Shown here: positions 1-63,876 of the stretch, in pieces
Numbering within the stretch: position 1 is the stretch's first letter
Layout: each line of letters begins with the position of its first letter
Assembly (NCBI GenBank): GCA_964017185.1
Contig: OZ024871.1
Location: 62,857,226 to 62,921,225, forward strand
DNA: 64,000 bases
Origin: Rugalucina vietnamica
Taxonomy: Eukaryota > Mollusca > Bivalvia > Lucinida > Lucinidae
Direction: 5' to 3'
Made by a program: the position numbers and the translations under genes
The notes under the pieces: generated by a model
What the model was told of the DNA's origin: nothing
Database searches by the model: none
The model's input: only the letters and a program-made list of their open reading frames with translations

Positions 1-597
1 AGAGAAAGTAATGATTAAACAGATCAGGATTCTTAGCAGGAAATTCTTCATGAAGAGTTTGCGTGTTTGGAAAGAAGTCTAGACATTACCGTATAGTGGT
101 CTGAACCTATAGTACTATATAGAGTCTTCTTCTCATAACTCACGTACAACCTGACCGAGATACAAAATCACAAGTCCATTGTGCTGTGTGCAACTGAACA
201 GATGCATAACATAAATCATTCTTGTGTGCTAAGGTCCTAACTTCAATTTCTGCTTAATTTTGTCACATATTTTTTCACGTCCTTGGATATATGAAAAGAC
301 AGATGTTGTCTTAGAGATATGCTATTGCATAATGATGAATCAAGCCTAGATTAAAATCAGTCAATATAATATTATTATGAATATCAACAGAGACGACAAC
401 ATGTGTTCATAAGCTCACTAGTTTAAGCTAGGCTTCTTAAACGAAAAACAAACATTTTTCCACAAAATTTGCCACGAAATACTTCCCGAGGGGTTAGACT
501 GGTGAAGTGTTGTTGGCACTGACAAATAGGTGATAGAGCATCTGAATTGACAACATATACAGATGTACATATCTTGTGAACAACATCGACTTCCTAC
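1..597 (-). other. FBXL16 intron 1 (partial)
   Basis: Begins on the minus strand with a GTAGGAAGTC donor directly after the FBXL16 coding exon. No coding frame matching the remaining C-terminal leucine-rich repeats was seen here, so the intron probably runs off the left edge. No recognisable repeat was noticed. Confidence 0.7.
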
Positions 598-1688
598 CTG
601 TCCAGAACCAGTTCTTCTAGCTGGTTAAGATCACAGGCAATGTACTCTAGGGCGGCATCCGTCATCCTTGGACACCATGAAAGGTCAAGGACACGCAATT
701 TTCTCAGATTTTCGGCAATTAGTTCTACTCCGTCATCGGTAATTTTACTACACCCTGAAAGACTGAGAATAGTCAAGTTAGGGAGAGAGTGAACAATGTT
801 GACTATTCCATGGTTGGTGATTTCCCAGCATGATTGTAAACGCAATACGCACAAAGTGTAACTTTGTTTTGCACTGAAGAATGCAAGGGCTGCGTCTGTC
901 ACGTGATAGGCTTGTAGGTTAAATTCGTAAAGTGAGGGTAAAAGTTGGGACACGGCTCCAACCGTGTCGTCTGCAACATTAATACAGTCACTAACACTGA
1001 GCGAAACTATTTTAGGATTCAGACACGACCACAGACCCGTTTCCGTTAATTCGTTGCACCCTGATAATTCCAGACGATAAATTCCCGCCATTTTCTTGAA
1101 CAGCGTCTCAAGCCCTGAATCGGAAACGTTGGAGCACCTCAGACCAATGGAACGCAGCTGCTTCTTGCAGTTTGAGAAATGTATGACGAAATCAGTGATG
1201 TCGTCATCTGTAGCGCCAAATAAACACACAGAATCAAAGCTACGGTGCTGTAAGCTTTCATAATACAGTCTTTTTGCTTCATCCCTTTTCGCTAATTCCC
1301 GGCATGACACAATAGGAATAACATTAATCCAGAACCGAGGTTGATACAGAATATGTTTCCATTGTTTACACACTTGACACAGAGCTCTTCTTTCCATCGC
1401 TGAGAAATACATGAAAAACTTCGCCAGAAACCTGTCGTCCATAAACAAATCCCTCACGGTAGTAGGCTGGGTCCGCCCGAATAAACTCCGAATTTTCCGC
1501 GCTATCAGCGGCTTCGGTGATCGTACCATCTTGTGGACCGGGCCTGCTGTCAGCGGCGGTCCGTTTGTTGGCTTGGTGACGGGATCTTTGACAGGAGTCG
1601 TCTGTTGCTGTTGCGGCTGCTCGCGATGTAATCTCAGTCCCCTTATTCCATTCGATATTTCCATGTATGCTCTCCTAATGGTCGACAT
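598..1688 (-). CDS. FBXL16: F-box/LRR-repeat protein 16, first coding exon (3' partial)
   Basis: Encodes 363 complete codons plus two bases of a split codon, from an ATG at 1688. Residues about 84-122 form the F-box-like region (it includes QVCKQWKHILYQPRFW). From about residue 170 there is a run of cysteine-containing leucine-rich repeats, with segments such as LSVSDCINVADD, SCWEITNHGIVN, LSLSGCSKITDDGVEL and LDLSWCPRMTDAALEY. These are characteristic of vertebrate FBXL16 and give confident orthology. The N-terminal ~80 residues are low-complexity (Gln, Pro, Thr) and poorly conserved in the family. The exon ends ...CTG GAC AG|GTAGGA; in FBXL16 the next residues continue with more repeats, so about 110-120 residues are missing to the left. 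F-box proteins usually link substrates to SCF ubiquitin ligases through Skp1. FBXL16 is an atypical member reported to associate with PP2A subunits, so ligase activity is not assumed. A second in-frame ATG lies eight codons on and could be the true start. Confidence 0.93.
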
Positions 1689-2709
1689 GGTCAATTATTC
1701 CAATATTTTAATCCCAGAAGTGCTTGTTTCTCAGAGCAATTAGTCACTTTTATTAAAGCATCGTAAATCCGATAGCAGGCGACAGTCAGTGTAATATGGA
1801 AGAAATAACACACAGCATCATAAGACAACGCGCGAGACTAACAATAATGTGAAAACAGACTGAATCTATAAACATTAGACCTTCCTTTTTCATGTCATGC
1901 ACTCAAGAGCTGTTTCCTACATATTGGAAATTTATACATCACCGATTTAATCTCATATTATGGAAAATTATTCTTTCAACTTTTAACACATCATTATCAT
2001 CTGGAACATGCTGCAACTTTATGCATCCTATAATAATTTGCCAACACTTTAATTTTGGCACATGAATTGTTTATCGTTACTTATTGGTTTTATTATCCTC
2101 TTGTTTCCATCGCCAATATAGACATGTTCGTTACAAGGCAGTCTGATCGATATGTTCCAAACATTATTCCAATAATGACATAATGTCGGCAGATTGTTGG
2201 ATATGTTCATGCTGATCTGTGTTAGTCTGCGTTTCAATTCCATTCAAAATGTTTAAAGAATAACCACTGTAAGCTTGACATATATAGGTTCTTTACTCTT
2301 GCACGATTAATCTTAGTATAGCGAATGTTGATTTTTCTAGAAAAATAATTTAGATATATAGATCTCTAGAAGTCGTTGGGCTATGGCTTATTTTGTTCGC
2401 CTGGAAGATACGAGATATTCTTTCGATAAACCAAATTGTTTACAGAATAGGTTCCAGAATCGAAAATCAATGTCTTAATAGTTTTCGGCTACAACAGAGC
2501 GCATGAAGAAACCTAAATTTACGACTAAAGTCACATGAAACAATGCATGAAGCCTGCGACCATGTACATGTATGTCTGTTCTTTGATTTTACGTACCAGC
2601 CAACAGCTATGGTCATCTCGGGACGTTGCCTCCATTTTGTGGGACTTCTACCCAACATTCAGTGGATACCTTCACATCCGCATTGTGCTATAAACATGAT
2701 CACCCAATA

Positions 2710-11890: not shown

Positions 11891-13419
11891 GTGTTCATTC
11901 TTACAATCGTAAATAACAACCAAACATACTTATTTTCTTTATTTAGTGTCAAAAAGCACAAGAATAGAAACACAGAAGCGGAATGGACAAAATACTGAGA
12001 CACTATCGTACAGTTAACGTTAACAGTCAAGCTGAGTATATCTACACTGGGCTTTGCAAAATGGTCAAAAAGAAATGCGGCTCCAAAATGAAATGGGATC
12101 TTTCATAAAGACAGCATAGTTTTAATTTAAGATAAAATATAAAACTCTTTTGGAAGCAGTGAAAACATTCAAAGAGTCATATTCTGCAATGTCGGTTAAT
12201 TAACCCTCATCAGTCACCCTTGATAAACCGGTGACGTAAGCCAGATACAACTAGCTTTTGTAATTTACAGGTACAGTTAATATCACAACGCTGTTCAGTT
12301 GTGATCCACAAAGCTGTATCTTATATACGGGTAAATGTTTATGAGCCTTTTGCGTGTGATTCAGGAGATTCACAATCTGCCGAACACAGTGGTTATTTGT
12401 TTGTTTCAGTTGTATCCTAGAAGCTTTGCATGGAGACACAAGCAGCCCAAAAGGGCGGGGGCCCATACTCCCAACCGGAGGTTATTCCCACCCGGAGGTT
12501 ATGGAATAATTAAGCTTCGACTGTTATAGAAAGGGTATTTTATCATTTGTTTTAATCTTCTCACTTGGTTTGAAATTCTGAGACTGTATAATTCATGTAA
12601 CAGTAACTCTAGACTGTTTTGCTAGCTTTAGTCTTGTATTATTTTTTGTATATTTAGCGCCAATGAAAAGTTACCAGTAAAGCAGGTTCAATGAACACCT
12701 GATATTATTTGGCTCATTCTGAACAGACAACTGCCGATACTTCAGCATTCATTTTTATGACTTAGCGTGTCATCCACCAATGCTATTGAAATCGGTGCTC
12801 ATCACAGCCGAATAGGTTACACGCATCCTGGACAAATGTCAGAAGCTTCCATTGAAATGTATAAAGAATTGCAAAGTGTACTACATGTACCTGAAAGAGG
12901 TCCTCTATTCCACCAGCCGATAGCAAAGTTTAAATAAGTTTGATGGCGTTTTCACAGAATGATGATATAAAGGCACAAGAAGTCATGACGACTTATGGCC
13001 TTCTAGTTCCCAAAATTTCGAAAATCACAAGTAACTCATACATCACGTGCACCATATATTTCCAAGGATAGTGGAAATGTTTCATGGAAATAATCGATTT
13101 GCCGTTGAAAAGAATCTTGAATGGAAGCTAAACTTTTGTAAGAAATTATACATGTATACGGTGTGCGCATCCGAGGACAATGCGGAAATGAGGACATCAA
13201 TGTATATGTATTTTTTTAAAACAGCGAAATTTTAGCGGTGGTAACTTTTCATTAACGCTGAGTATATTTTCGAAATGAATCATTGATCATCGCATACAAT
13301 AATAAATTATAACAAGTAAGTTTAGCTTGCGACAAAGGGAAAGGGAAATGAGAAAATGAATTTTAATTGAATATAGTGTTGTTGTTTTTTTTGTTGTTTT
13401 TTTTTTTTTTTTTGTTTTT

Positions 13420-13459
<40 letters not shown>

Positions 13460-13504
13460 CGTGGTTGTTTCCTAGCTCGATGATCGGTGTTTAGTCGTTA
13501 GTCG
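11891..13504 (-). other. 3' flank and likely 3' UTR of the EF-hand gene, copy 1
   Basis: Conserved with 59637-62563 after removing the retroelement inserted in the second copy. There is no coding frame. A minus-strand AATAAA-type signal lies at about 11937 and is shared by the duplicate near 59675. Whether the transcript reaches that far is unknown. The 13386-13459 part is a poly-T tract. Confidence 0.45.
13386..13459. repeat. Interrupted poly-T tract
   Basis: About 74 bases of almost pure T. The same position in the duplicate (near 62510) has only about ten T, so the tract expanded after the duplication. Confidence 0.95.
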
Positions 13505-13563
13505 TTACTCGTCATCGTGCATTGGTTCAATGATTGGTGTTTTCTGAACTTTCACTTCATAAC
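13505..13563 (-). CDS. Secreted EF-hand protein, exon 5 (C-terminus)
   Basis: Follows a clean minus-strand acceptor (TTTACAG) and completes the Ser codon split with exon 4. It encodes the short tail YEVKVQKTPIIEPMHDDE and a TAA stop, residues 172-190 of the predicted protein. The tail has no known domain and ends in acidic residues. The same exon, with the same length, splice phase and stop position, is at 62564-62622. Codons differ, but only a few residues do (Q to E, M to I, H to Q), which argues that both copies have been under protein-level selection. Confidence 0.88.
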
Positions 13564-13590
13564 CTGTAAATACAAAGAATGTTTACAAAC

Positions 13591-13898
13591 ATGTACGAGG
13601 GTTGCCCCAAAAGTTCCATTACACTCACTGTTTTGCCATAATAACAGCAAATCAGATATTACAACAAATATGGCCATCAAGTACTATATCTTAGGGCTTT
13701 TGGGGTAAATTTTCGTTCGACTGCTTGCATCTGTTAAAATCCAGTGGGTTTTGAACACTTGTGCCCCTACTGCAGCGGAGCAGGTCTGATGACGTTGCCG
13801 TTAATTGTGATTTTTTTCTTCATTTTTTTGCAGTTTGGATAAATATGCTACATACAAGAAATCTATTTTAAAATTATATTTATATTTAGCATAATATA
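13591..13898. mobile_element. Insertion in intron 4 of copy 1 (transposon end)
   Basis: The duplicate reads directly from AAACATG into TATAATCAAAGTG, whereas copy 1 has about 310 extra bases here. They begin with TACGAGGGTTGCCCCAAAAG, a start typical of mariner-type ends. No matching inverted end was seen on the right, so this is probably a truncated element. Confidence 0.6.
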
Positions 13899-14275
13899 AT
13901 CAAAGTGTAACACTCATTGATGGAAAAACAACAACAAGAACAAAGCAACAAATTAATCATATGCAGAAATAAATGATAAAGTGATACTGTAATGTATGCT
14001 GTAATGTTTCCGTACTGCCTCCATTAATTTGTCACATTTGGATCTATATAAAACCAAAATATTCAATAAATATATGTACATGTATTGAACTGCGCATGGT
14101 TCGCTCAAGGTTTGTTGCAGTTATTTTATAGCACATGCAATCTATTCAAACCACAAATGTGCTAAAAGGACAACATTTTTACTTCAAAAAATTGTCGATT
14201 CGTCTGATGTTTGCAATGAATATCGTTATAATGTAAACTGCTAGATAGAAAAACTGACTTAACAACATTACATAC

Positions 14276-14329
14276 TTCCAAAGCCCCAAGGTGCAGTGAA
14301 AAACTCCTCCTCGTTAAGGTAACCATCAT
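14276..14329 (-). CDS. Secreted EF-hand protein, exon 4 (second EF-hand loop, C-terminal half)
   Basis: This 54-nt exon lies between a TTTGTTTAG acceptor and a GTATGTAATG donor. With one base carried from exon 3 it encodes DDGYLNEEEFFTAPWGFG. Joined to the ...EADED end of exon 3 it completes a canonical 12-residue calcium loop, D-E-D-D-D-G-Y-L-N-E-E-E (residues 151-162), with acidic residues at positions 1, 3, 5 and 12 and Gly at 6. Neither exon holds a full loop alone, so the fit is strong evidence that they are spliced together across a ~15.8-kb intron. A paralogous exon of identical length is at 63877-63930. Confidence 0.9.
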
Positions 14330-14410
14330 CTAAACAAAGAAACAATCAATGATACATCTTTTTAATCAATATCAATTCATACAACGATAAACTCACTTCA
14401 ATCTGATCAT

Positions 14411-14550
14411 CGATGCATAAATGAAATCAAGCTTTCTGACAATAACTTTCTGACAACAAGCTTTCTGACGATAACAATCAAGAGAGACAACTGCAACTGG
14501 CATATATACGACTGCTGTTATAAAACCCGGTATTACCGGTAAATACGGCG
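14411..14550. repeat. Left outer inverted repeat bracketing the satellite block
   Basis: Near-perfect reverse complement of 29462-29600. It contains three copies of the short word CTTTCTGAC and ends at the inner edge with CCCGGTATTACCGGTAAATA, in which CCGGTATTACCGG is a near palindrome. The open frames seen in both arms simply reflect this shared DNA. Confidence 0.9.
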
Positions 14551-14559
14551 AATGCAGTA

Positions 14560-14855
14560 AAAAGGTACAAGTAGGCATTGATCAGGAAATGGTGCAATCA
14601 GATGGAATTCCCACTCCATAAACCGAGGGGTGGAAAAAAATTAAAATGACACTTAGGTACTTATACCAAGAAAACATATGGTAAGCCGAGTGAGCAGCTC
14701 GTCCCCAATAGGCGGCCGCTCAGTTACCCGAACTGAACTAGAAATATGAAAATGTACAAACAGCACAAAATCTCGACTCCAAAACACAAAACAATTGGAA
14801 CCACAACAGAAGTATCGCCTTGGAACGATCAGTAATATAAAATACTGGGGAGGGG
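14560..14855 (-). mobile_element. RT-element tail repeat, minus orientation
   Basis: Carries family landmarks in reverse: AAAAGGTACAAGTAGGCA, CACTCCATAAACCGAGG, AGTAAGCCG-type words, and AAGTATCGCCTTGGAACGAT. It sits between the left bracket and the first satellite unit. Confidence 0.8.
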
Positions 14856-15919
14856 CTTAAAGTCTGGTCATATGCAATGCGCAAATCTGGCCTATTAGGG
14901 ACTGTGACACCAGCTGTATACCATACATAGCTGGGGTATATACCTAGCAAACCATTTACCACCAAATGATTTGGGGGAGTAGAGACCGACAGTATCAAAC
15001 TAATCTTTGAAAATCACCACAATTTATAAAATTGACCTATTTTGCTGTAAAGTCTGGTCAATCTTAATGTCCGAACTGACCTTATTAGGGAATGTGACAC
15101 CAACTATATACCATACATAGCTAGTGTATATACCTAGCAAACCATTAACCACAAAATGATTTGGGGGAGTAGAGTCTGACAGTATCAAACTGATTTTTGA
15201 AAATCACCAAAATTTATAAAATTAACATATTTTTCTGTGATGTGTGGTCATATGCAATGTACAAATCTGACCTTATTAGGGAATGTGACAACAGTTGTTT
15301 ACAATACCTAGCTAGGTATATACTTGGCAAACCATTAACTACCAAATGCTTTGGGCGTGTAGAGGCTGACAGTATCAAACTGATATTTGAAAATTTCCAA
15401 AATTTATAAAATTGACATATTTTGCTGTAGTCATTTACAATTTCCAAATCTGACCTTACAAGGGAATGTGACACCAGCTGTATACCATACCTAACAAAGG
15501 TATATACCTAGCAAACCATTAACCACCAAATGATTTGGGGGAGTAGAGGCTGACAGTATCAAACTGATCTTTGAAAATGACCAAAATTTATAATATTTAC
15601 ATATTTTGCTGTGAAGTCTTGTCATTTTCAAAGTCCAATGGTGACATCATAAGGGAATGTGACACAAGCTGTATACCATACCTAGGTATGGTATATACCT
15701 TGCTACCCATTAATTACCAAATGATTTGGAGGAGTAGAGGCTGACAGTATCAAACTTATATTTAAAAATCACCAAAATTTATAAAATTCAAGTATTTTGC
15801 TGTAACGTTTGGTCATATGCAATGTCCAAATATTATCATATCAGGGAATGTGACACTAGCTGTATACCATACCTAGTAAAGGTGTATGCCTAGCAAATTA
15901 TTTACCACCAAATGATTTT

Positions 15920-16111
15920 TATCCAGTTTTACGTCCCTTTCAAGATTATTTCAGCTCATATGAGACGGACCAATCAGTAGGTGGGCGAAAATGGGAGAAC
16001 CCCGAGAAAAACCACCTGGCACACCCGCAATCAGAACTTGGCTTGTCTCACATGTGGCCAGTGCAGGGCTCGAAATGATCGAATGATTAAGAATGATTAA
16101 GAAACAGCGCT
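15920..16111 (-). mobile_element. tRNA-derived SINE inserted in the array
   Basis: Reverse orientation, with tail-side TTTTACGTCCCTTTCAAGAT and body words AACCACCTGGCACACCCGCA and GGCTTGTCTCACATGTGGCC. It is flanked by an 11-bp direct repeat, CAAATGATTTT (15909-15919 and 16112-16122), taken from the satellite unit itself. The tRNA-like head is truncated at 16111. Confidence 0.9.
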
Positions 16112-18206
16112 CAAATGATTTTGGGGAGTAGGGGCTGACTGTATCAAACTGATCTTTGAAATGACCAAAATTTATTGACATATTATGCTGTAAAATCTGG
16201 TCATATTCAATGTAAAAATCTGACTTTATTAGGGGATGTGACACCAAATAAATACCATACCTAGGTATTGCATATTACTAGCAAGTTATTAACCACCAAA
16301 CTATTTGGGGGAGCAGAGGTTGAGAGTATGAAACTGATCTTTGAAAATGACCAAAAGTTATGAAATTGATCAATTTTGCTGTTATGTCTGATCAGCTGCG
16401 ACATCAGCTGTATAACAATACTGGTATGTACCTAGCACCCCATTTATTACCGAATGATTTGGGGGAGTAGAGGCTTACAGTATCAAACTGTTCTTTGAAA
16501 ATGACCAACATTTATAAAATTTACCTATTTTGCTGTAAAGTCATCATAAGGGAATGTTACACCAGCCGTATACCATACCTAGCTAGGGTATGTACATAGC
16601 AACCCATGTGCCACCAATTAACTTGGGGGAGAAGAGGCTGACAGTATCAGACTGGTCTTTGAAAATGACCAAAAATTTATAAAATTGACCTTTTTTGCTG
16701 TAAAGTCTTATCACATGAAATGTCCTAATCTGACCTTAGTAGGGAATGTGACACCAGCTGTATACCATACCTAGCTAGGGTATATATCTAGCAAACTATT
16801 AACCATCGACTGATTTGGGGGAGTAGAGGCTGACAGTTTCAAAATAATCTTTGAAAATGACCAAAACTTATAAACTGACCATTTTATTTTCAATGTCCAA
16901 TGGTGACATCATAAGGGAATGTGACACAAGCTGTATACCATACCTAGCTAGTGTATATACCTAGCAAACCATTTACCACCAAAGAACTTGGGGCGTAGAG
17001 GCTGACAGTATCAAACTGATCTTTGAAAATGACCAACATTTATGACATTAACCTATTTCGTTGTTATGACTGGTCACATGCAATGTCCAAACCAGACCTT
17101 ATTACGAAATGTGACACCAGCTGTAACCATACATAGCTAGGGTATATACCTAACAAACCAATTACCTCCAGACTTGTTTGGAGAGTAGAGGCTGACAGTA
17201 TGAAACTGGTCTTTGAAAATGACCAAAATTTATAAAACAGACCTATTTGCTTAAAATTCTGGTCATATACAGTGTCTTAATCTGACCTTATTAGGGAATG
17301 TGACACCAGCTATATACCATACCTGGCTAGGGTATATACCTAGCAAATCATTGACTATCAAATGAGTACAGGCTGATAGTATCCAACTTATCTTTGAATA
17401 TTTATAAAATTGACCTATTTTGCAATAAAGTGTTGTCAATTTCAGTGTCCGATGGTGACATCAAAAGGGAATGTGACACAATCTGTATACCGTACATAGC
17501 TAGGGTACATACCTAACAAACCATTAACCACCTAATAACTTTGGGGAGTAGGGACTGACAGTATCAAACTGATCTTTGAAAATGATCAAAAATTATGAAA
17601 TTGATCTATTTTGCTGTTATGTATGGTCACATGCAATGTCCAAACCTGACCTTATTAGGGAATGTGACACCAGCTGTATACCATACATAGCTAGGATATA
17701 TACCTAGCAAAACAATTATCACCAAATATTTGGAGGAGTAGAGGCTGACAGAATCAATCTGGTCTTTGAAAATTACCAAAGTTTATAAAATTGACCTATT
17801 TTGCTGTAAAGTCTGGTCATATGCAAAAACTGATTTTTAAAAGTGTCCAAAATATGTAAAAATTGCATATTTTGCTGTTATGTCCGGTCATATGCAATGT
17901 CCAAACATGACCTTATTAGGGAATGTGACACCAGCCCTATACTATACCTAGCTAGGGTATAAACCCAGCAAACCAATATTTACCAAATGATTTGGGGGAG
18001 TAGAGGCTGACAGTATCAAACTGATCTTTGAAAATTATCAAAATATATTTGCAATGACCAAATCTGACCTTACAAGGGAATGTGAGACCATCTGTATACC
18101 ATACATAGCTGGGGTATATACATAGCAAACCATTAACCATCAAATGATTTGGGGGAGTAGAGGCTGACAGTATCAGACTGATCTTTGAAAATCACCAAAA
18201 TATATA

Positions 18207-19250
18207 CACTGAAAAAAAGTTATAAGAGGCCACCTCATATTTTGTCTTCTAGTTCAGAAAGTAAAATACGATCAATTAAAATTCATGATCATATGAATAA
18301 ACCAATGTCTAACAGTGGCTCTGTGAGTTTCTGCATTCCAAAATGCGTGATACTTCTCACACAGACGAAGCATGTGTAAAGGTACCCTATTTCAAAAAGT
18401 CACACTTTATTAACATCAAATTAAATGTCATATTATGACGTTGTGTTTTTACATTTTAATTTATTTGAAAGTGCTACTGACTGCCATGATGCAAGATAAA
18501 ATTAAGTCAAAAGTGTTGCTGCAATAAGAATCTTCGTTTCTGTTTTGCACATGCAAGAAGACAACAACCTGAATAACAGGAATTCAGCTTTTGTATGCAA
18601 TTTGCATACCAACTTTGTTCTTCTCCAGTTGCGTTATTATCAGCAGCACGGCATTGAAATTTTCAGCAATTATTTAGGTCAAATACTAGACTCTGATAAA
18701 CTTTGAAAATTAAAAAAATCGTCCACAAATTTTGTTATTTTGTTCGTTAAAAATTGGCATTGAAACCGGAAGTGTGCGGCAGCCTTGACATGTTGGTCCT
18801 CGAAAATGGTCAAAAACAGTTCAGTCGAATTATATCTCTCATTTCCAGGCCTCATCAAGTGAATTTAACAGGGGTCAACATGTTTAAGAGGCACATTTAT
18901 GAATTTTTCAAAAAATCTCAAAATTGGCGATTTTTAAAAATGTATAAAAATTCTACCAGTAGAGAAAATTCGAATGTTTGATGTTTTTCCGAGCCGTAAC
19001 GACCCCTTTGATGACACCCGTTCCTAATTTCAATAAATGGTGTGCTGTATCCAATTTTTTATTTAAAAACATTGATTTTTGCATTTTTACTCCAAAAACG
19101 CCTTTAGTAAAAGAAAATTATTTCTTAACACTTTGGAACTTTACTTACTTGAAAGACACGCCTTTTGGCAAAAAAATGTGCAATTTTGAACTTGGCTTAG
19201 AAACAAAAAATGAGTTTGAAAAGTGGCCTCTTTATAACTTTGTTTCAGTG
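18207..19250. mobile_element. TA-flanked 1,044-bp transposon inserted in the array
   Basis: Inverted ends begin CACTGAAAMAAAGTTATAA and continue GAGGCCAC. TA lies on both sides (18205-18206 and 19251-19252), and a satellite unit resumes exactly afterwards. The interior is not satellite and has no recognisable transposase. Confidence 0.88.
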
Positions 19251-21222
19251 TACAATTTACATATTTTGCTGTAAAGTATGGTCATATGCAATGTGTATAT
19301 CTGATCCTATTAAGGAATGTGACACCAGTTGTATACCATACCTAGCTAGGCTATATACTTGGCAAACCATTGACCACCAAATGATTTGGGGGAGTACAGG
19401 CTGACAGTATCAAACTGATCTTTGAAAATAACGAAATTTATGAAATTTACATATATTGCTGTAGTCTGGGCATTTGCAATGTCCAAATCTGACTTTACAA
19501 GGGAATGTGACACCAGCTGTATACCATACCTAGCAAAGGTGTGCACCTAGCAAACCATTAACTACCAAATGATTTGGGGGAGTAGATAATGACAGTATCA
19601 AACTGATCTTTGAAAGTGACCAAAAATTATAAAATTGACCTGTTTGGCCGAAAGTCTGGTCATTTTCAAAGTCCAATGGTGACATCATAAGGGAATGTGA
19701 CCCATACCTAGGTATGGTATATATACCTAGCAAGCCATTAGCCACCACATGATTTGGAGGAGTAGAGGCTGACAGTATCAAACGTATATTTAAATATCAC
19801 CAAAATTCATAAAACTTAACTAATTTGCTGTAAGGTCTGGTCATATGCAATGTTCAATTCTGATCATATATACGGAATGTGACACTAGCTGTATACCATA
19901 TCTAGCAAAGATGTATGCCTAGCAAATCATTAACCACCAAATGATTTGGGGGAGTAGAGGCTGACAGTATCAAACTGATCTTTGAAATGACGATTATCTA
20001 TTGACCTATTTGGCTGTAAAATCTGGTCATTTGCAATGTAAAAATCTGATCTTATTAGGGGAAGTGAAACCAACTAAATACCATACCTAGCTATGTCATA
20101 TTACTAGCAAGCTATTAACCACCAAACTAATAGGGGAAGGAGAGGCTAACAGTATGAAACTGATCTTTGAAAATGACCAAAACTTATGAAATTGATCAAT
20201 TCTGCTGTAGTATGGTCATGATCAATGTCCAATGGTGACATCATAAGGGAATGAGACACCAGCTGTATACCATACTTAGCTAGTGTATATACCTAGCAAA
20301 CCATTAACCACCAAATAACTTTGGGGAGGAGAGGCTGACAGTATGAAACTTGTCTTTGAAAATGACCAACATTTATAAAATTGATTCATTTTGCTCAAAA
20401 GCTGGTCATATGCAATGTCCAAATCTGATCATATTATGGAATGTGACACCAGTAGTATCCCATATCTAGCAAGTGTGTATACCTAGCAAACCATTAACCA
20501 CCAAATGATTTGGGGGAGTAGAGGCTTAAAAATTTATAAAATTGACCTATTTTACTGTAAAGTCTGGTCATTTTCAATATCCAATGGTGACATCATAAGG
20601 GAATGTGACACAATCTGTATACCATATCTAGCTAGGTTATATACCTAGCAAACCATTTACTACCAAATAACTTGGAGGAGTAGAGGCTGACAGTATCAAA
20701 CTGATCTTTGAAAATGATCAAAATTTATGAAATTGATCTATTTTGCGGTTATGTCTGGTCACAAGTAATGTCCAAATCCTGACCTTATAAGTCAATGTGA
20801 CACCAGCTGAATACCATACATAGCTAGGGTATATATCTAGCAAAACAATTACCACCAAACTATTAGGGGGAGTAGAGGCTGACAGTATGAAACTGGTCTT
20901 TGAAAATGACCAAAATTTATAAAAATGACTGACCAAAATTTATAAAATTGACGTATTTTGCTGTTAAGTCTGGTCAGATGCATTATCCAAATCTGACCTT
21001 ATTAGGGAATATGACACAAGCTGTATACCATACTTAGCTAGGGTATATGTCTAGCAAACCATTAACCATCAAATGCTTTGGGGGAATAGAGGCTGATTAT
21101 ATCGAACTTATCTTTGAAAATTTTTAAAATTGACTTTCTGGTCACAAACAGATGTCCAAATTGACCTTACAAGTGAATGTGACACCAGCTGTATACCACA
21201 CCTTGCTAGGATATATACTTAG

Positions 21223-24200
21223 TTAATGATTTTCTAGGTGTATACCTTAGCTAGGTATGGTATATAACTGGTGTCACATTCCCTAATAAGGTCAGATTTG
21301 AACATTGCATATGACCAGACTTTATAGCAAATTTATAATAGATCAATTTTATCAATTTTGAGTATTTTCAAAGACCAGCTTCATATTGTCAGCCTGTACT
21401 CCCCCAAATCATTTGATGGTTAATAATTGCTAAGTATGTACCCTAGCTAGGCATGGTATACAGTTGGTGTCACATTCCCTAATAAAATCAGGTTTGGACA
21501 TTGCATGTGACCAGACATTACAGCAAAAGAGGTCAATTTTAAAAATTTTGGTCATTTGTAAAGACCAGTTTCATATTGTCAGCCTCTACTCCCCCAAATT
21601 AGATTGGTGGTTACTGGTTTGCTAGGTATATACCCTAGCTAGGTATGGTATATAGCTGGGGTCACATTCCCTAATAAGGTCAGATTTTGACATTGCATAT
21701 GACCAGACTTTACAGCAAAATAGGCCATTTTTTCAATTGTTGTCATTTTCAAAGACCAGTTTCATATTGTCAGCCTCTACTCCCCAAATTAGATTGGTGG
21801 TTACTGGTTTGCTAGGTATATACCCTAGCTAGGTATGGTATATAGCTGCTGTCACATTCTCAAATAAGGTCAGGTTTGGACATTGCATTTGACCAATCAT
21901 AACAGCAAAATAGGTTAATTTTATAAATTTTGGTCATTTTCAAAGATCAGTTTGATACTGTCAGCCACTACTCCGCCAAGTTATTTGATAGTTAATAATT
22001 TGCTAGAGATATACACTAGCTAGATATGGTATATAGCTGGTGTCATATTCCCTTATGATGTCAAAATTGGACATTGAAAATGACCAGACTGTACAGCTGT
22101 ATAGCAAAATAGGTCAATTTTGTCCTCTTTAAAAGACCAGTTTGATACTGTCAGCTTCTACTCCCCAAAAACATTTGATGGTTATTGTTTTGCTAGGTAT
22201 ATACCCTCGCTATGTATCATATTCGGCTGGTGTCACATTCCCTAATAAGGTCAGTTTTGGACATCGCATGTGACCAGACATAACAGCAAAATAGGTAAAT
22301 TTTATAAATTGTTGGTCATTTTCAAATATTAGTTTGAAACTTTCAGCCTCTACTCCCCCAAATCATTCGATGGTTACTGGTTTGCTAGGTATGTACCCTA
22401 GCCAGGTATGGTATACAGCTGGTGTCACATTGCCTAATAAGGTCAGGTTTGGACATTGCATGTGACAAGACATAACAGCAGAATAGGTCAATTTTATAAA
22501 TTTTGGTCATATTCAAAGATCAGTTTGATACTGTCAGCCTCTATTCCCTCAAGTTATTTTGTAGTAAATGGTTTGCTATCTATATACTGTAGCTAGGTAT
22601 GGTATACAGCTGGTGTCACATTCCCTAGTAAGGTCGGGTTCGGACATTGCATGTGACAAGTCATAACAGTAAAATAGGCCAATTTTATATTTTTTTTTAT
22701 TCAAAGATCAGTTTGATACTGTCAGCCTCTACTCCCCTAAGTTATTTGGTGGTAAATGGTTTGCTAGGTATATACTCTAGCTAGGTATGGTATATAGCTG
22801 GTGTCACATTCCCTAGTAAGATCAGGTTTGGAAATTGCATGTGACAAGTCATAACAGCAAAATAGGCCATTTTTTGTAAATTTTGGTCATTTTCAAAGAT
22901 CAGTTTGGTACTGTCAGCCTCTACTTCCCCAAATAAATTGGCTATTATTTTGCTAAGTATATACCGTAGCTGGGTATGGTATACAGCTGGTGTCACATTC
23001 CCTAATAAAGTCAGGTTTGAACATTGCATTTGACCAGATATTACAGCAAAATAGGTCAATTTTATAATTTTTTGTCATTTTCAAAGATAAGTTCGATAAT
23101 ATCAGCCTCTACTCCCACAATTCATTTGGTGGTTAATGGTTTGCTAGGTATATACCGTAGCTAGGTATGGTATATATCTTGTGTCACATTGCCTAATAAG
23201 GTCAGATAAGGACTTTGCATATGACCAGACTTTACAACAAATTAGGTCAATATTATAAATTTTAGTCATTTTGAAACTCCCGTTTCATACTGTCAGCCTC
23301 TACTCCCCCGAATCGTTCGATGATTAATGGTTTGCTAGGTATATGCCCTAGCTAGATATGGTATAAAGCTGGTGTCACATTCCCTAATAAGGGCAGGTTT
23401 GGACATTGCATGTGACAAGTCATAACAGCAAAACATGCCAATTTTATAAATGTTGGCCATTTTCAAAGACTTGTTTGAAACATTCAGCCTCTACTCCACT
23501 AAGTTGTTTTGCTAGGTATATACCTTAGCTAGGTATGGTATATATCTGGTGTCAGATTGCCTAATGATGTCAGATTAGGACATTGCGAATGACCAGACTT
23601 TACAACAAAATAGGTCAATTTTATAAATTTTGGTCATTTTGAAACAACCGTTTCATATTGTCAGCATCTACACCACCCCCCTCCCCAAATCGTTTGATAA
23701 TTAATGGTTTGCTAGATATATACCCTAGCTAGGTATGATATAAAGCTGGTGCCACATTCCCTAATAAGGGCAGGTTTGGACATTGCATGTGACCAGACAT
23801 AACAGCAAAATATGTCAATTTTATAAGTTTAGTCATTTTCAAAGATCGGTTTGATACTGTCAGACTCTACTCCCCCAAATCATTTGGTGGTTAATGGTTT
23901 GCTAGGTATATACCCTAGCTAGTAATGGTATACAATTGGTGTCACATTCCTTAATAAGGCGAGATTTTGACATTAAAAATGACCAGACTTTACAGCAAAA
24001 TAGGTCAATTTTATAAATTTTGGTCATTTTCAAAGATCAGTTTGATACTGTCAGCCTCTACTCCCCCAAGTTATGTGGTGGTTAATGATTTGCTAAATAT
24101 ACCCCCTAGCTAGGTGTGGTATATAGCTGGTGTCACATTGCCTTATGATGTCAGAATTGGACATTGAAAATGACCAGATCATATAGCAAAAGGTGTCAAT

Positions 24201-27200
24201 TTTATAAATTTTGGTCATTTTCAAAGACCAGTTTGAAACTGTCAGCCTCTGCTCCCCCAAGTTATTTGGTGGTTAATGGTTTGCTAGGTATATACCCTAG
24301 CTAGGCATGGTATACAATTGGTGCCACATTCCCTAATTAGGTGAGATTTTGACATTAAAAATGACCAGACTTTACAGCAAAATAGGTCAATTTTATGCAT
24401 TTTGGTCATTTTCAAAGACTGTTTGATACTGACGAACTCTATTCCCCAAAATCATTTGGTGGTTAATGGTTTGCTATGTATATACCCTAGCTAGGCATGG
24501 TATACAATTGGTGTCACATTCCCTAATAAGGTCAGATTTGGACATTAAAAATGACCAGACTTTACAGAAAAATATGTCAATTTTATAAATTTTGGTCATT
24601 TTCAAAGATCAGTTTGATACTGTCAGCCTTTACTCCCCAAAGTTATTTGGTTGTTACTGATTTGCTAAATATACCCCCTAGCTAGGTATGGTATATAGCT
24701 GGTGTCACATTCTCTTTTGATGTCAGAATTGGACATTGAAAATGACCAGATCGTATAGCAAAAGAGGTCAATTTTATAAATTTTGGCCATTTTCAAAGAC
24801 TAGTTTGAAACTGCCAGCCTCTACTCCCCCAAGTTATTTGGTGGTTATTGTTTTGCTAGTTATATACCCTCGCTATGTATCATATACAACTGGTGTCACA
24901 TTCCCTAATAAGGTCAGGTTTGAACATTGCATGTGACCAGATATAGCAACAAATAGAAGTATGTGACCAGATATACATGTAGCAACAAATAGGTCAATTT
25001 TATAAATTTTGTTTATTTTCAAAGATCAGTTTGATGCTGTCAGCCTCCACTCTTCCAAGTTATTTGGTGGTTAAGGGTTTGCTAGGTATATACCCTAGCT
25101 ATGTATGGTATACAGCAAGTGTCACATTTCCTTGTAAGGTCAGGTTTTGACATTGCATGTGACAAGTCATATCAGCAAAATAGGCCAATTTTATAAATTT
25201 TGGCCATTTTCAAAGACTAGTTTGAAACTGTCAGCCTCTACTCCCCCAAGTTATTTGGTGGTTTTTGTTTTGCTAGGTATATATCCTCGCTATGTATCGT
25301 ATATAGCTGGTGTCACGTTCCCTAATAAGGTCAGGTTTGGACATTGCATGTGACCAGACATAACAGCAAACAGGTCAATTTTATAAATTTTGATCATTTT
25401 CAAAGATCAGTTTGATACTGTCAGCCTCTACTCCCCCAAGTTATTTGGTGGTTATTGTTTTGCTAGGCATATACCCTCACTATGTATCGTATACAGCTGG
25501 TGTCACATTCCCTAATAAGGTCAGGTTTGAACATTGCATGTGACAAGATATAACAACAAATAGGTGCATGTGACCAGATGTAGCAACAAATCGGTCAATT
25601 TTATAAATTTTGTTTATTTTCAAAGATCAGTTTGATGCTGTCAGCCTCTACTCCCCCAAGTTATTTCGTGGTTAATGGTTTGCTAGGTATATACCCTAGC
25701 TATGCATGGTATACAGCTGGTGTCACATTTCCTTGTAAGGTCAGGTTTTGACATTGCATGTGACAAATCATATCAGCAAAATAGGCCAATTTTATAAATT
25801 TTGGCCATTTTCAAAGACCAGTTTGAAACTGTCAGCCTCTACTCCCCCAAGTTATGTGGTGTTTTTGTTTTGCTAGGTATGTATCCTCGCTATGTATCAT
25901 ATACAGCTGGTGTCACATTCCCTAATAAGGACAGGTTTGGACATTGCATGTGACCAGACATAACATAAAAAGGTCAATTTTATAAATTTTGGTCATTTTC
26001 AAAGATCAGATTGATACTGTCAGCCTCTACTCCCCCAAGTTATTTGGTGGTTATTGTTTTGCTAGGTATATACCCATGTTATACACTTGTGTCACATTCC
26101 CTAATAAGGTTAGTTTTGGACATTGCATGTGACCAGACATAACAGCAAAAAGATCAATTTTATAAATTTTGGCCATTTTCAAAGACCAGTTTGAAACTGT
26201 CAGCCTCTACTCACCCAAGTTATGTGGTGGTTTTTGTTTTGCTAGGTATGTATCCTCGCTATGTATCATACACAGCTGGTGTCACATTCCCTAATAAGGT
26301 CAGGTTTGGACATTGCATGTGACCAGACACAACATAAAAAGGTCAATTTTATAATTTTTGGTCATATTCAAAGATCAGTTTGATACTGTCAGCCTCTACT
26401 CCCCCAAGTTATTTGGTGGTTATTGTTTTGCTAGGTATATACCCTCGCTATGTATCATATACAGCTGGTGTCACATTCCCTAATAAGGTCAGGTTTGGAC
26501 ATTGCATGTGACCAGACATAACAACAAAAAGGTCAATTTTATAAATTTTGGTCATTTTCAAAGATCAGATTGATACTGTCAGCCTCTACTCCCCCAAGGT
26601 ATTTGGTGGTTATTGTTTTGCTAGGTATATACCCTAGCTAGGCATGTTATACAATTTGTGTCACATTCCCTAATAAGGTTAGTTTTGGACATTGCATGTG
26701 ACCAGACATAACAGCAAAAAGGTCAATTTTATAAATTTTGGTCATTTTCAAAGATCAGTTTGATACTGTCAGCCTCTACTCCCCCAAGTTATTTGGTGGT
26801 TATTGTTTTGCTAGGTATAAACCCTGGTTATGTATCATATACAGCTGGTGTCACATTCCCTAATAAGGTCAGGTTTGGACATTGCATGTGACCAGACATA
26901 AAAGCAAAAAGGTCAATTTTATAAATTTTGGTCATTTTCAAAGATCAGATTGATACTGTCAGCCTCTACTGCCCCAAGCTATTTGATGATTATTGTTTTG
27001 CTAGGTATATACCCTAGCTAGGCATGGTATACAATTTGTGTCACATTCTCTAATAACGTTAGGTTTGGACATTGCATGTGACCAGACATAACAGCAAAAT
27101 AGGCCAATTTCATAAATTTTAACCATTTTCAAAGACCAGTTTCAAACTGTCAGCCTCTACTCCCCCAAGTTATGTGGTGGTTTTTGTTTTGCTTGGTATG

Positions 27201-29440
27201 TATCCTCGCTATGTATCATATACAGCTGGTGTCACATTCCCTAATAAGGTCAGGTTTGGACATTGCATGTGACCAGATATAACAGAAAAAAAGGTCAATT
27301 TTATAAATTTTGGTCATTTTCAAAGACCAGTTTGAAACTGTCAGTCTCTACTCCCCTAAGTTATGTTGTGGTTTTTGTTTTGCTAGTTATGTATCCTCGC
27401 TATGTATCATATACAGCTGGTGTCACATTCCCTAATAAGGTCAGGTTTGGACATTGCATGTGACCAGACATAACAGAAAAAAGGTCAGGTTTGGACATTG
27501 CATGTGACCAGACATAACAGAAAAAAGGCCAATTTTATAAATTTTGGTCATTTTCAAAAGATCAGTTTGATACTGTCAGCCTCTACTCCCCCAAGTTATT
27601 TGGTGGTTATTGTTTTGCTTGGTATATACCCTCGCTATGTATCATATACAGCTGGTGTCACATTCCCTAATAAGGTCAGGTTTGGACATTGCATGAGACC
27701 AGACATAACAGCAAAAAGGTCAGTTTTATAAATTTTGGTCATTTTCAAAGATCAGATTGATACTGTCAGCCTCTACTCCCCCAAGTTATTTGGTGGTTAT
27801 TGTTTTGCTAGGTATATACCCTAGCTAGGCATGGTGTACAATTTGTGTAACATTCCCTAATAAGGTTAGTTTTGGATATTGCATGTGACCAGACATAACA
27901 GCAAAAAGGTCAATTTTATAAATTTTGGTCATTTTCAAAGATCAGTTTGATACTGTCAGCCTCTACTCCCCCAAGTTATTTGGTGGTTATTGTTTTGCTA
28001 GGTATATACCCTCGCTATGTATCATATACAGCTGGTGTCACATTCCCTAATAAGGTGAGATTTTGACATTAAAAATGACCAGACTTTACAGCAAAATAGG
28101 TCAATTTTATAAATTTTGGTCATTTTCAAAGATCGGTTTGATACTGTCAGACTCTATTCTCCCAAATCATTTGAATCATTTGGTGGTTAATGGTTTGCAC
28201 AGTATACCCCCTAGCTAGGCATGGTATACAATTGGTGTCACATTCCCTAATAAGGTCAGATTTGGACATTAAAAATGACCAGACTTTACAGTAAAATAGG
28301 TCAATTTTATAAATTTTGGTCATTTTCAAAGATCAGTTTGATACTGTCAGTCTCTACTCCCCCAAGTTATTTGGTGGTTAAAGATTTGCTAAATATACCC
28401 CCTAGCTAGATGTGGTATATAGCTGGTGTCACATTCCCTTATGATGTCAGAATTGGACACTGAAAATGACCAGATCGTATAGCAAAAGAGGTCAATTTAA
28501 TAAATTTTGGCCATTTTCAAAGACCAGTTTGAAACTGTCAGCCTCTGCTCCCCCAAGTTATTTGGTAGTTAATGGTTTGCTAGGTATATACCCTAGCTAG
28601 GAATCGTATACAATTGGTGTCACATTCCCTAATAAGGTGAGATTTTGACATTAAAAATGACCAAACTTTACAGCAAAATAGGTCAATTTTATAAATTTTG
28701 GTCATTTCAAAGATCAGTTTGATACTGTCAGCCTCTACTCCCCCAAGTTATTTGGTGGTAAATGATTTGCTAAATATACCCCCTAGCTAGGTGTGGTATA
28801 TAGCTGGTGTCACATTCCCTTATGATGTCCGAATTGGACATTGAAAATAACCAGATCGTATAGCATAAGAGGTCAATTTTATAAATTTTGGCCATTTTCA
28901 AAGACCAGTTGGAAACTGTCAGCCTCTGCTCCCCCAAGTTATTTAGTGGTTATTGTTTTGCTAGGTATATACCCTTGCTATGTATCATATACAACTGGTG
29001 TCACATTACCTAATAAGGTCAGTTTAGACAATGCATGTGACAGGAAAATTTTATAAATTTTGGTCATTTTCAAAAATCAGTTTGATATTGTCAGCCTCTA
29101 CTCCCCCAAGTTATTTGGTGGTTAATGGTTTGCTAGGCATATACCCTAGCTATGTATGGTATACAGCTTGTGTCACATTCCCTTGTAAGGTCAGGTTTGG
29201 ACATTGCATGTGGCAAGTCACAACAGCAAAACAGGCCAATTTTATAAATTTTGGTCATTTTCAAAGATGAGTTTGGTACTGTCAGCCTCTACTTTCCCAA
29301 AAAATTTGGTGGTTGTTGCTTTGCTAGGTATATACCCAAGCTAGGTATGGTATACAGCTGGTGTCACATTCCCTGATAAAGTCAGGTTTGGATAGTGCAT
29401 ATGACAGACATTACATTCCCTAATAAGGCCAATTTTGGGC
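21223..29440 (-). repeat. ~190-bp satellite array, right arm (inverted orientation)
   Basis: About 43 units of the same repeat in reverse complement, recognisable by GGTGTCACATTCCCTAATAA, TGGTCATTTTCAAAGATCAG and TGATACTGTCAGCCTCTACT. The switch occurs around 21205-21240, where a forward unit breaks off after its CTAGGATATATACTTAG segment and an inverted one starts. From about 25.0 to 28.1 kb the units are highly uniform, with variants such as CCTCGCTATGTATCATATAC, pointing to recent amplification. Three marked unit types recur in the same order near 23.9-24.9 and 28.0-28.9 kb, which is higher-order structure. Confidence 0.97.
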
Positions 29441-29461
29441 AGTGCATACAGCAAGATAGGT

Positions 29462-29600
29462 CGCCGTATTTACCGGTAATACCGGGTTTTATAACAGCAG
29501 TGGTATATATGCTAGTTGCAGTTGTCTCTCTTGAATGTTATCGTCAGAAAGCTTGTTGTCAGAAGTTATTGTCAGAAAGCTTGATTTTAGCCGATGCATA
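29462..29600. repeat. Right outer inverted repeat bracketing the satellite block
   Basis: Reverse complement of 14411-14550 with only a few differences and one or two small indels. It lies immediately outside the last degraded satellite unit. Confidence 0.9.
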
Positions 29601-30087: not shown

Positions 30088-30256
30088 CATCCTCATCCGC
30101 CTCCTTGAATAAACCTCTAAGTTGCTCGGGCTTTGTGAACGTCCATCTCGACAGAAAATCGTAGGCCAATTCTTCGTACTCAATAACACCATCCTTGTTA
30201 TCATCATATTCCTCAAAGTCGTCAGGAATCGGGAACCAGACCATTCCATCCACCAC
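30088..30256 (-). CDS. Secreted EF-hand protein, exon 3 (EF-hand 1 and start of EF-hand 2)
   Basis: 169 nt between a GTATTATAG acceptor and a GTAAATC donor, starting in phase 0 and ending with one base of a split codon. It encodes residues 98-153. The first calcium loop, D-D-N-K-D-G-V-I-E-Y-E-E (residues 115-126), is canonical, followed by the exiting helix LAYDFLSRWTFTKPEQL and the entering helix of the second hand, LRGLFKEADED. EF-hand pairs bind calcium; the actual affinity and partners are unknown. A read-through frame continues past the donor but is not conserved in character. Confidence 0.93.
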
Positions 30257-33084: not shown

Positions 33085-33990
33085 ATGGCCCGTATGGACC
33101 CCAGGGGCACGGTAGGCAGGATTTATAAAGAGGACCATTATACATTGCTACACCCAAAATATGAAAGCTCTGGGCCTTGTGGTTTCGGAGAAGAAGATTT
33201 TTTTTTATGTTTTTCCCATTGTAAGTCTATGGGAGCTAATGACCCCCGGGGCGGGACCATTTTTGACCCCAGGGGCATGATTGGCAGGATTTATATAGCG
33301 GACCACTAAACATTGCTACACACAAATATGAAAGCTCTGGGCCCTGTGGTTTCAGAGAAAAAGATTTTTTTATATTTTCATCATGACGCCCCCGGGGCGG
33401 GGCCCGTGTGGACCACAGGGGCACGGTTGGCAGGATTTTTATAAAGACGAACACTATATATTGCTACAAACAAAATATGAAAGCTCTGGGCCTTGTGGTT
33501 TCGGAGAAGAAGATTTTTTTATGTTTTACCCATGACCCCCCGGGGCGGGGCCCGTATGGACCCCAGGGGCATGGTTGGCAGGATTTATAAAGAGGACCAC
33601 TATACATTGCTACACACAAAATATGAAAGCTCTGGGCCTTGTGGTTTCTGAGAAGATTTTTTTTATGTTTTCCCATTGTAAGTCTATGGGAGCTAATGAC
33701 CCCCGGGGCGGGGCCATTTTTGACCCCAGGGGCATAATTGGTAGGATTTATAAAGAGGAACACTAAACATTGCTACACACAAAATATGAAAGCTCTGGAC
33801 CTTGTGGTTTCAGTGAAGAAGATTTTTTTATATTTTCATCATGACACCCCCGGGGTGGGGCCCGTATGGACCCCAGGGGCACGGTTGGCAGAATTTATGA
33901 AGAGGACCACTAGACATTGCTACACAAAAAAAATATGAAAGCCCTTGGCCTTGTGGTTTCAGAGAAGAAGATTTTTATATGTTTTCCCAT
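33085..33990 (+). repeat. GC-rich ~150-bp minisatellite, six units
   Basis: Units begin near 33088, 33250, 33400, 33548, 33710 and 33858. Each carries GGACCCCAGGGGCAYGGTTG or a TTTTTGACCCCAGGGGCA variant, then ACATTGCTACACACAAAATA and TGAAAGCTCTGGGCCTTGTG. Two unit types alternate in the order A-B-A-A-B-A, so the array looks like two copies of a three-unit block. Long open frames on both strands arise because the units have few stops. No gene is called. Confidence 0.93.
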
Positions 33991-52565: not shown

Positions 52566-52567
52566 TA

Positions 52568-53478: not shown

Positions 53479-53829
53479 TACGTCGTGAAAAAGAACAATA
53501 AAAATGGTAAGCTTTAAAATTTTGGTCCTTATGACGAAGACAGTAATTTTATTAAATGATCCATGGGCGTATAAAACATAAGAATGTATCTAGAAAATAT
53601 TTGAAATAGAGCAACCATAAGAAGGTTTTATAAAATATATACATTTTTATATTTGTACATGCATACTATTTCAGTAACTATTCAATACTGAGGAATGAAC
53701 TGTCGAGCAGAGTGCATGTGGCGGATACCACAAACCCCGCACACACAGTTACATTATTGCTGTTAAAAACCCGACATTGTAGCGAAGGTAAATTAAAACT
53801 TGAATATTTGTTTGCTAAGTTAAAATTAA

Positions 53830-63800: not shown

Positions 63801-63876
63801 ACAAACAATATCGCTGCATGAAATTATATTTAAAATAAATGTGAACTACTAGATACAAATTGACCCGAATACGTAC

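What the first reader, a model, noticed from the sequence alone, without database searches (positions are those of the whole stretch)
14411..29600. A giant inverted satellite block bracketed by its own inverted repeats inside an intron
About 70 units of a ~190-bp repeat occupy intron 3. They point one way to 21.22 kb and the other way beyond it, and the whole 15.2-kb block is framed by ~140-bp inverted repeats. Independent bracketing repeats suggest a single unit, perhaps a satellite-carrying TIR or fold-back mobile element grown by internal amplification, or a palindromic duplication of one original. Satellite-bearing transposons are known in bivalves, but this size and symmetry stand out.
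Basis: partly seen in the sequence, partly recalled or inferred. Interest (0 to 1): 0.85.

Follow-up and report, generated by a model that had tools for sequence, protein, structure and literature searches.

The report
Jumping fifteen-kilobase inverted satellite transposon
The block is one copy of a small family of very large jumping elements, each made mostly of two opposed arrays of a 190-base repeat between short inverted ends, and near-identical copies on other chromosomes show that the whole structure moves as one piece.

Summary
Confirmed. A 15,172-bp element (14420-29591) lies in an intron of an EF-hand gene between 9-bp target-site duplications: terminal inverted repeat (TIR, 128 bp, 97% identical), 27 inward-pointing units of a ~190-bp satellite, one switch, 43 units pointing the other way, second TIR. 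The genome search found 29 TIR places; the same satellite adjoins 27, pointing inward in 26. Eight two-ended copies (the window's and seven fetched), 15-25 kb on seven contigs, share the opposed-arm plan; a ninth is a 2.4-kb derivative. Seven of nine have an exact 9-bp duplication, each different. Interiors are colinear through the switch between sites: 99.0% over 10.9 kb (two other copies), 97.5% over 7.3 kb (this copy and one other). So the opposed satellite block moves whole. It works like a non-autonomous foldback DNA transposon. Its ends (9-bp duplications, 14-15-bp subterminal repeats, asymmetric 4-nt tips outside the inverted repeat) point to the Mutator superfamily, close in plan to Tm1, but no linked transposase was found. 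It resembles Drosophila Tetris on a far larger scale: new variant of a known kind. How the arms arose, and whether the satellite exists outside the family, stay open.

The parts
14411..14419 (.). Left target-site duplication CGATGCATA
   Evidence: Identical to 29592-29600
14420..14551 (+). Left TIR: asymmetric tip AATG (14420-14423) plus 128-bp inverted repeat with three TTTCTGAC motifs spaced 14 and 15 bp
   Evidence: 97% to the right TIR; 132/132 identical at six genomic places including this one; motifs; tip AATG in nine of nine two-ended copies
14557..14861 (-). Fragment of a dispersed SINE- or LINE-end-like repeat between left TIR and array; truncated at the satellite side
   Evidence: Other copies in the window run on past the point matching 14861; at the same join in eight of ten copies examined (partial in one), absent in copy H, lost in I
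14862..21232 (+). Left arm: 27.2 unit equivalents of the 188-190-bp satellite, interrupted twice
   Evidence: nhmmer map
15919..16105 (+). Dispersed repeat inserted in a left-arm unit, with an ~11-bp duplication CAAATGATTTT read by eye
   Evidence: Similar stretches at four other places in the window; sequence; 98% over 150 bp in copies B and C
18205..19252 (+). Nested TIR element (1,048 bp with its flanking TA pairs) inside a left-arm unit
   Evidence: Inverted ends and unit phase on both sides; no match in the nine other stretches fetched
21220..21232 (.). Switch point where the two arms meet without a loop
   Evidence: + match ends at model position 97, - match at 101, 13 bp overlap (alignments)
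21220..29455 (-). Right arm: 42.8 unit equivalents of the same satellite (one weak antisense hit in the left arm included in that sum), no large insertion
   Evidence: nhmmer map
29461..29591 (-). Right TIR, including tip GCTA (29588-29591, written TAGC on +)
29592..29600 (.). Right target-site duplication CGATGCATA
30088..30256 (-). EF-hand exon upstream of the intron that holds the element (its 5' limit at 30256 is a proposal)
14265..14329 (-). EF-hand exon downstream of that intron; acceptor next to 14330, 3' end not settled

Best explanation
This is a member of a family of giant, non-autonomous foldback DNA transposons. SHOWN: two short TIRs with fixed asymmetric tips (AATG / GCTA) enclose two inward-pointing arrays of the same ~190-bp satellite that meet at a switch; this 15-25-kb structure sits at several sites with its own target-site duplication, with colinear interiors between sites. 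INFERRED: a Mutator-superfamily transposase supplied in trans binds the subterminal 14-15-bp repeats of the TIR, cuts the whole block out and pastes it elsewhere with a 9-bp stagger. The arms lengthen and shorten by unequal exchange, the right arm more than the left. The copy in the window jumped into an intron of an EF-hand gene, has about 25 right-arm units fewer than its closest relatives, and was hit by a 1-kb TA-flanked element that the other examined copies lack.
For: Duplications in nine two-ended copies: exact 9 bp in 7, 7 bp in one (read by eye), 8 of 9 matching in one; tips AATG and GCTA in 9 of 9. TIR genome-wide: 29 places, 29 of 29 candidates scored; satellite adjoins 27 of 29, inward in 26. 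Opposed arms in eight of nine two-ended copies: 20.5-38.0 unit equivalents on one arm, 35.1-78.3 on the other. Colinear through the switch: copies B and C 99.0% over 10,859 columns; window copy and B 97.5% over 7,333, thirteen full 500-column windows at 97.6-99.4%. Left 1,020 bp: 98.6-99.4% within window/B/C, 98.2-99.1% within D/E/F/J, 95.2-96.7% between. Nested TA element only in the window copy. TIR over 100 bp with 14-15-bp subterminal repeats.
Against: No transposase seen: nine of the longer ORFs in the window block gave no Pfam match, ten of the ORFs from inserts in other copies gave one match, a reverse transcriptase; most ORFs listed were not scanned. Of 59 MULE-domain places in the genome the nearest to a family TIR is 600 kb away. 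So the link to Mutator rests on the plan of the ends alone. Right ends of the window copy and B are only 86% alike over 700 bp, so this copy is rearranged near its right end. Eleven of 29 TIRs were not shown to be paired; most of those regions could not be fetched. Whether the satellite also forms arrays outside the family is unknown: that search did not complete.
Confidence: 0.92

Rival explanations
1. Pack-type capture: a pair of short Mutator-type ends picked up an already inverted piece of satellite from elsewhere, and the satellite is cargo, not part of the ends. (Compatible with the mobile-family finding; a rival for the origin of the arms.)
For: No detectable homology between TIR and satellite unit: local score 24, reached by 201 of 500 shuffles, unlike Tetris where 37 bp are shared (PMC4079207, passages). 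Left and right arm units intermix in part: 8 arm changes on the tree against 21.1 in shuffles, at least 3 forced by well-supported branches.
Against: 27 of 29 TIR places, all but two degraded fragments, adjoin the satellite, and in copy H satellite begins right after both TIRs, as expected if the arrays belong to the ends.
Confidence: 0.3
2. In-situ growth: a small MITE inserted in the intron and its inner repeats grew into the present arms there, possibly by a palindromic duplication.
For: 39 unit pairs differ by 6.75% or less, all in the right arm, and arm lengths differ between copies.
Against: Copies at other sites share the unit order at 97-99%, the switch included; no mirror register stood out in five copies.
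Confidence: 0.03
3. A Helentron/pearl-type element, the usual satellite carrier described in bivalves.
For: Such elements carry tandem units of 164-166 bp and other lengths in oysters and clams (PMC8268682, PMC11136912, PMC5139131; passages).
Against: Duplications of 9 bp, TIRs at both ends and two opposed arrays; the passages describe one array between a left and a right conserved box. That Helentrons leave no such duplication is recalled, not from a call.
Confidence: 0.02
4. Assembly artefact at the inversion point.
For: Long satellites are hard to assemble; reads were not available.
Against: The two sides carry one duplicated target site, the arms are only about 82% alike, and opposed arms recur in independent places.
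Confidence: 0.02

Closest known systems
Tetris foldback of Drosophila virilis (PMC4079207; section 10 and passages seen)
   Same: TIR with an outer flanking domain followed by ~220-bp tandem repeats in inverted arms; 8-10-bp duplications; no conserved ORF; repeat arrays of up to 66 copies reported
   Different: There the TIRs reach 1,735 bp, a middle domain separates them, repeats are ~94% alike, and flanking domain and repeat share 37 bp. Here arms are about 4-15 kb, most copies show no middle domain, units average ~82% alike, no shared stretch was found, and blocks of many kilobases are colinear between sites
Tm1 Mutator/foldback family of root-knot nematodes (PMC3169594; passages incl. abstract seen)
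   Same: Mostly 9-bp duplications, ~14-bp internal repeats in the TIR, short asymmetric end motifs outside the inverted repeat (7 bp there, 4 bp here), mostly non-autonomous copies
   Different: Motif letters differ; a described Tm1 copy is 1,080 bp and PCR products were 0.9 and 2.3 kb; no satellite is mentioned in the passages; one Tm1 copy codes for a Phantom-type transposase, none was found here
Muta1 and other mosquito MULEs (PMC5225508; passages seen)
   Same: TIRs mostly over 100 bp, ten of twelve long-TIR families with 9-15-bp subterminal tandem repeats, 8-9-bp duplications
   Different: Muta1 is 3,198 bp and codes for its transposase; no satellite arms in the passages
Galileo of Drosophila (PMC3573991; passages seen)
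   Same: Foldback-like TIRs that lengthen by ~210-bp internal repeats, the two ends independently
   Different: P superfamily, 7-bp duplications, TIRs up to about 1.26 kb
Helentron/pearl satellite carriers of bivalves (PMC8268682, PMC11136912, PMC5139131; passages seen)
   Same: Mobile element with satellite-like tandem units
   Different: One short array between two boxes in the passages; no TIR/duplication pair of this type (recalled)

Membership tests
Foldback elements (structural class) | Long inverted arms containing tandem repeats | tested here: met
Foldback elements (structural class) | Target-site duplication flanking the whole | tested here: met
   exact 9 bp in 7 of 9 copies, shorter or imperfect in 2
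Foldback elements (structural class) | Dispersed copies with the same ends | tested here: met
   29 TIR places, 9 two-ended copies
Mutator superfamily (MULE) | 8-10-bp target-site duplication | tested here: met
   (one of nine copies reads 7 bp)
Mutator superfamily (MULE) | TIR over 100 bp, often with short subterminal tandem repeats | tested here: met
   128-bp aligned TIR; three TTTCTGAC motifs in the left TIR, one of them short by a base in the right
Mutator superfamily (MULE) | MULE-domain transposase in an element with these ends | tested here: inconclusive
   59 MULE-domain places, none within 600 kb of a family TIR; a search for weaker tip matches did not complete
Tm1 family | Tm1 motif letters (A1, A2 and C as printed in PMC3169594) | tested here: not met
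   ends read AATG/GCTA and the motif TTTCTGAC; compared by eye with the printed motifs
Tetris family | Sequence identity to Tetris TIRs | not tested
   Tetris sequence not fetched
Helentron/pearl | No duplication of this kind; array in one orientation (recalled) | tested here: not met

The most novel reading that the evidence does not exclude
The opposed satellite arms are a working part of the transposon: by pairing, or by carrying many weak protein-binding sites, they bring ends 15-25 kb apart together, so that a Mutator-type transposase can move blocks well above the size usual for cut-and-paste elements. The family thereby seeds ready-made opposed satellite blocks, possible sources of hairpin RNA and heterochromatin, into introns.
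Probability: 0.25. Interest if true: 0.8.

Novelty: new variant of a known kind. Interest (0 to 1): 0.62.

Why it matters
How satellite DNA gets from place to place is a long-standing question. In the oyster papers whose passages I saw, the carriers are Helitron/Helentron elements with short arrays; for Drosophila Tetris the authors suggest that larger arrays may have disrupted transposition. Here near-identical copies at different sites show that many kilobases of opposed satellite travelled whole, unit order and older insertions included. That makes two things testable: whether satellite arms help or burden transposition, and what a multi-kilobase inverted array does in a transcribed intron. 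It also contrasts with a review's statement (PMC6431247, passages) that efficacy of DNA transposition drops above 6 kb of cargo and that no Pack-MULE reported by Jiang et al. [quoted passage not shown]

Tried and rejected
(1) Dating by the two TIRs of the window copy. I first took the 3 substitutions in 127 aligned sites as insertion age and counted 49 unit clusters older than its upper limit. The genome copies voided this: left TIRs are identical at six places and the left/right difference is mostly a fixed family trait. No age is claimed from it.

(2) Mirror duplication: no preferred register in the window copy nor in five copies (largest excess 0.024 over 16 pairs in copy H; no shuffles were run).

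(3) Arms as separate subfamilies: mean identity left-left 0.810, right-right 0.847, left-right 0.818; the arms cluster in part (within-minus-between beyond 2,000 permutations) but do not separate. 41 of 42 right and 20 of 26 left units have their nearest unit in the same arm. Only the 68 of 77 matches with at least 130 model positions went into these counts.

(4) A palindrome in the unit as cause of the switch: best 34-bp palindrome not beyond chance (34 of 300 shuffles as good; gapped version 47 of 300); single-strand folding z -1.6.

(5) A ~3-kb block duplication inside the left arm: suggestive only. Three-unit runs match, and identity is 0.866 in register against 0.81-0.82 at four or more units off, but equally high at one and two units off because end gaps were free.

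(6) Autonomous partner: the 78% TIR on C4 was fetched; it is a lone fragment, and the one long ORF scanned there is a host fucosyltransferase. Ten ORFs from inserts in copies F, G, H and J gave one Pfam match, a reverse transcriptase in G.

(7) Rfam: 0 matches in the window at gathering scores. Exact TIR and satellite strings: 0 in viral contigs; exact satellite string: 0 in prokaryote contigs; six strings: 0 papers.
Full report
WHAT IS THERE. The window holds an element of 15,172 bp, 14420-29591, between two copies of CGATGCATA (14411-14419, 29592-29600). From left to right: tip AATG; TIR 14424-14551; a 305-bp fragment of a dispersed repeat (14557-14861); satellite on + from 14862; the switch at 21220-21232; satellite on - to 29455; TIR 29461-29587; tip TAGC on +. 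The profile gives 77 satellite matches, 27.2 unit equivalents on + and 42.8 on -. The left arm has two further insertions: a dispersed repeat at 15919-16105 with similar stretches at four other places in the window, and a 1,048-bp TIR element at 18205-19252 that splits a unit at a TA. The right arm has no large insertion.

WHERE IT LIES. The block is inside a GT..AG intron of 15,758 bp on the minus strand (30087-14330). Joining the flanking exons gives the EF-hand loop DEDDDGYLNEEE; Pfam EF-hand models match the joined peptide, several above their cut-offs. A similar exon lies at 63870-63951 (84% identity); its neighbouring intron runs towards the window's end, so it gave no empty site. Intron number was not tested.

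IS THE BRACKETING MORE THAN CHANCE. Inverted pairs of dispersed repeats are common in this window, so an inverted pair alone would prove little. But this repeat has no third match in the window, it abuts the array on the right and lies one inserted fragment away from it on the left, and a 9-bp direct repeat stands at the same 4-nt distance on both sides (chance about 8e-5).

THE GENOME COPIES. After fourteen unanswered requests the genome search answered. The TIR has 29 places, 29 of 29 candidates scored; the tool warns that counts of repeats are lower bounds. In the loci held around them (about 1.5 kb each side) the satellite adjoins 27 of 29. It points inward in 26; three of these also have one antisense hit among seven. 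The exception, L052, is the left end of a deletion derivative. The two without satellite are fragments: positions 38-106 at 90%, and 1-103 at 78%. I examined ten copies, the window's and nine fetched. Nine have both ends: window, B (C3:55.17 Mb), C (C5), D (C4), E (C2:74.2 Mb), F (C11:21.5 Mb), G (C7), H (C13), I (C11:5.34 Mb). J (C2:12.4 Mb) has one end in the 20 kb fetched. Eight of the nine have two opposed arms: window 27.2/42.8 unit equivalents, B 27.3/68.1, C 27.3/68.4, D 21.9/72.5, E 21.8/56.9, F 20.5/78.3, G 34.3/62.7, H 38.0/35.1; lengths 15.2, 19.0, 19.0, 19.5, 15.6, 25.0, 20.9 and 20.2 kb, insertions included. I is 2.4 kb with 11.5 units on one strand. The other 11 TIRs were not paired here.

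IT MOVES WHOLE. Target-site duplications are exact 9-mers in seven of nine copies, all seven different; C reads 7 bp by eye and H matches at 8 of 9. Tips AATG and GCTA are the same in nine of nine. Flanks of 206-376 bp share only stretches away from the junctions, plus a 45-bp direct repeat between D's own two flanks. Interior order is conserved: B and C 99.0% over 10,859 columns; window and B 97.5% over 7,333 columns through the switch and 96.8% over the first 3.8 kb; thirteen full 500-column windows across the switch lie between 97.6 and 99.4%. Units inside the window copy differ by a median of 17%, so this is inheritance of a block, not likeness of a satellite. Against perfect conservation: the right ends of the window copy and B are only 86% alike over 700 bp, and the window copy's right arm is about 25 units shorter than in B and C, so it is rearranged near its right end.

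HISTORY WITHIN THE FAMILY. The dispersed-repeat fragment beside the left TIR is at the same join in eight of ten copies (partial in G) and absent in H, where satellite follows the TIR directly; I has lost that part. Window, B and C share the 15919 insertion (98% over 150 bp); D, E and F show only a 33-bp match in the corresponding part, and F has further matches elsewhere. The nested TA element is in the window copy alone among the ten. The left 1,020 bp sort into window/B/C and D/E/F/J. The switch has three forms: one in window/B/C, one in D/E/F/J, and one in G/H where the arms are 56-58 bp apart by the profile map. The simplest reading (inference) is an ancestor like H, one insertion beside the left TIR, then lineages that kept moving.

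HOW IT WORKS. Shown: ends, duplications, dispersed whole copies, differing arm lengths. Inferred: cut-and-paste by a Mutator-type transposase in trans. The left TIR has three TTTCTGAC motifs spaced 14 and 15 bp. MULEs are described with TIRs over 100 bp, 8-10-bp duplications and, in mosquito, 9-15-bp subterminal repeats (PMC5225508, passages). Tm1 has mostly 9-bp duplications, a ~14-bp TIR motif and asymmetric end motifs outside the inverted repeat, a feature its authors call unusual but seen in other Mutator-like elements (PMC3169594, passages). The genome has 59 MULE-domain places, several in open frames of hundreds of codons, none within 600 kb of a family TIR. Nine of the longer ORFs of the window block gave no Pfam match; ten ORFs from inserts in other copies gave one, a reverse transcriptase. 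So the class of the transposase is likely but not shown; I put it at about 0.75.

ORIGIN OF THE INVERTED ARMS. Open. No mirror register stands out in five copies. TIR and unit share nothing detectable. Units of both arms are mixed in part. Capture of a satellite and growth from inside the TIRs both remain.

COMPARISON. Tetris is the nearest in plan: flanking domain, ~220-bp repeats in inverted arms, 8-10-bp duplications, arrays of up to 66 units (PMC4079207, section 10 and passages). Differences are size, the missing middle domain in most copies, diverged units, and colinear blocks of many kilobases at different sites. Bivalve satellite carriers in the passages I saw are Helitron/Helentron or pearl elements. 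My ten literature searches listed no title or abstract on a foldback with multi-kilobase inverted satellite arms in a mollusc; only open-licence papers were searched, and I saw passages of nine of them.

LIMITS. No reads, no empty site, no second individual. Whether the satellite exists outside the family was asked eleven times, and whether another element has similar tips seven times, without an answer.

Noticed in passing
window 33087-33990: A ~146-bp G+C-rich tandem repeat with five copies of the motif GACCCCAGGGG, a string also present in a printed primer for the bivalve satellite BIV160; perhaps a pearl/Helentron-type repeat.
   Followed up: partly
window 52566-53480: Inverted pair of ~217 bp at 95% identity about 0.5 kb apart; looks like a separate ~0.9-kb TIR element.
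   Followed up: no
window, between 6498 and 61855: Thirteen stretches outside the element match the SINE- or LINE-end-like repeat that lies beside the left TIR.
   Followed up: partly
window 594-1694, minus strand: 366-codon open frame with F-box and leucine-rich-repeat matches, probably a host F-box/LRR gene.
   Followed up: partly
window 63870-63951, minus strand: Second EF-hand exon 84% like 14269-14350; a nearby paralogue whose matching intron was not read.
   Followed up: no
copy F, C11:21.50-21.52 Mb, element coordinates 13320-18829: 5.5-kb insertion in the right arm with ~50-bp inverted ends beginning GACATTTTTCACTTTTGAACG (ends read by eye); probably an unrelated DNA transposon.
   Followed up: no
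G000:C12:47337206-47388181: Two ends with the left-type fragment and one end without it within 51 kb, perhaps nested or tandem copies; the stretch between was not fetched.
   Followed up: no
G000:C11:5342576-5345012 (L026): 2.4-kb derivative with both ends, an exact 9-bp duplication and 11.5 units in one orientation only; shows internal deletion of one arm.
   Followed up: partly
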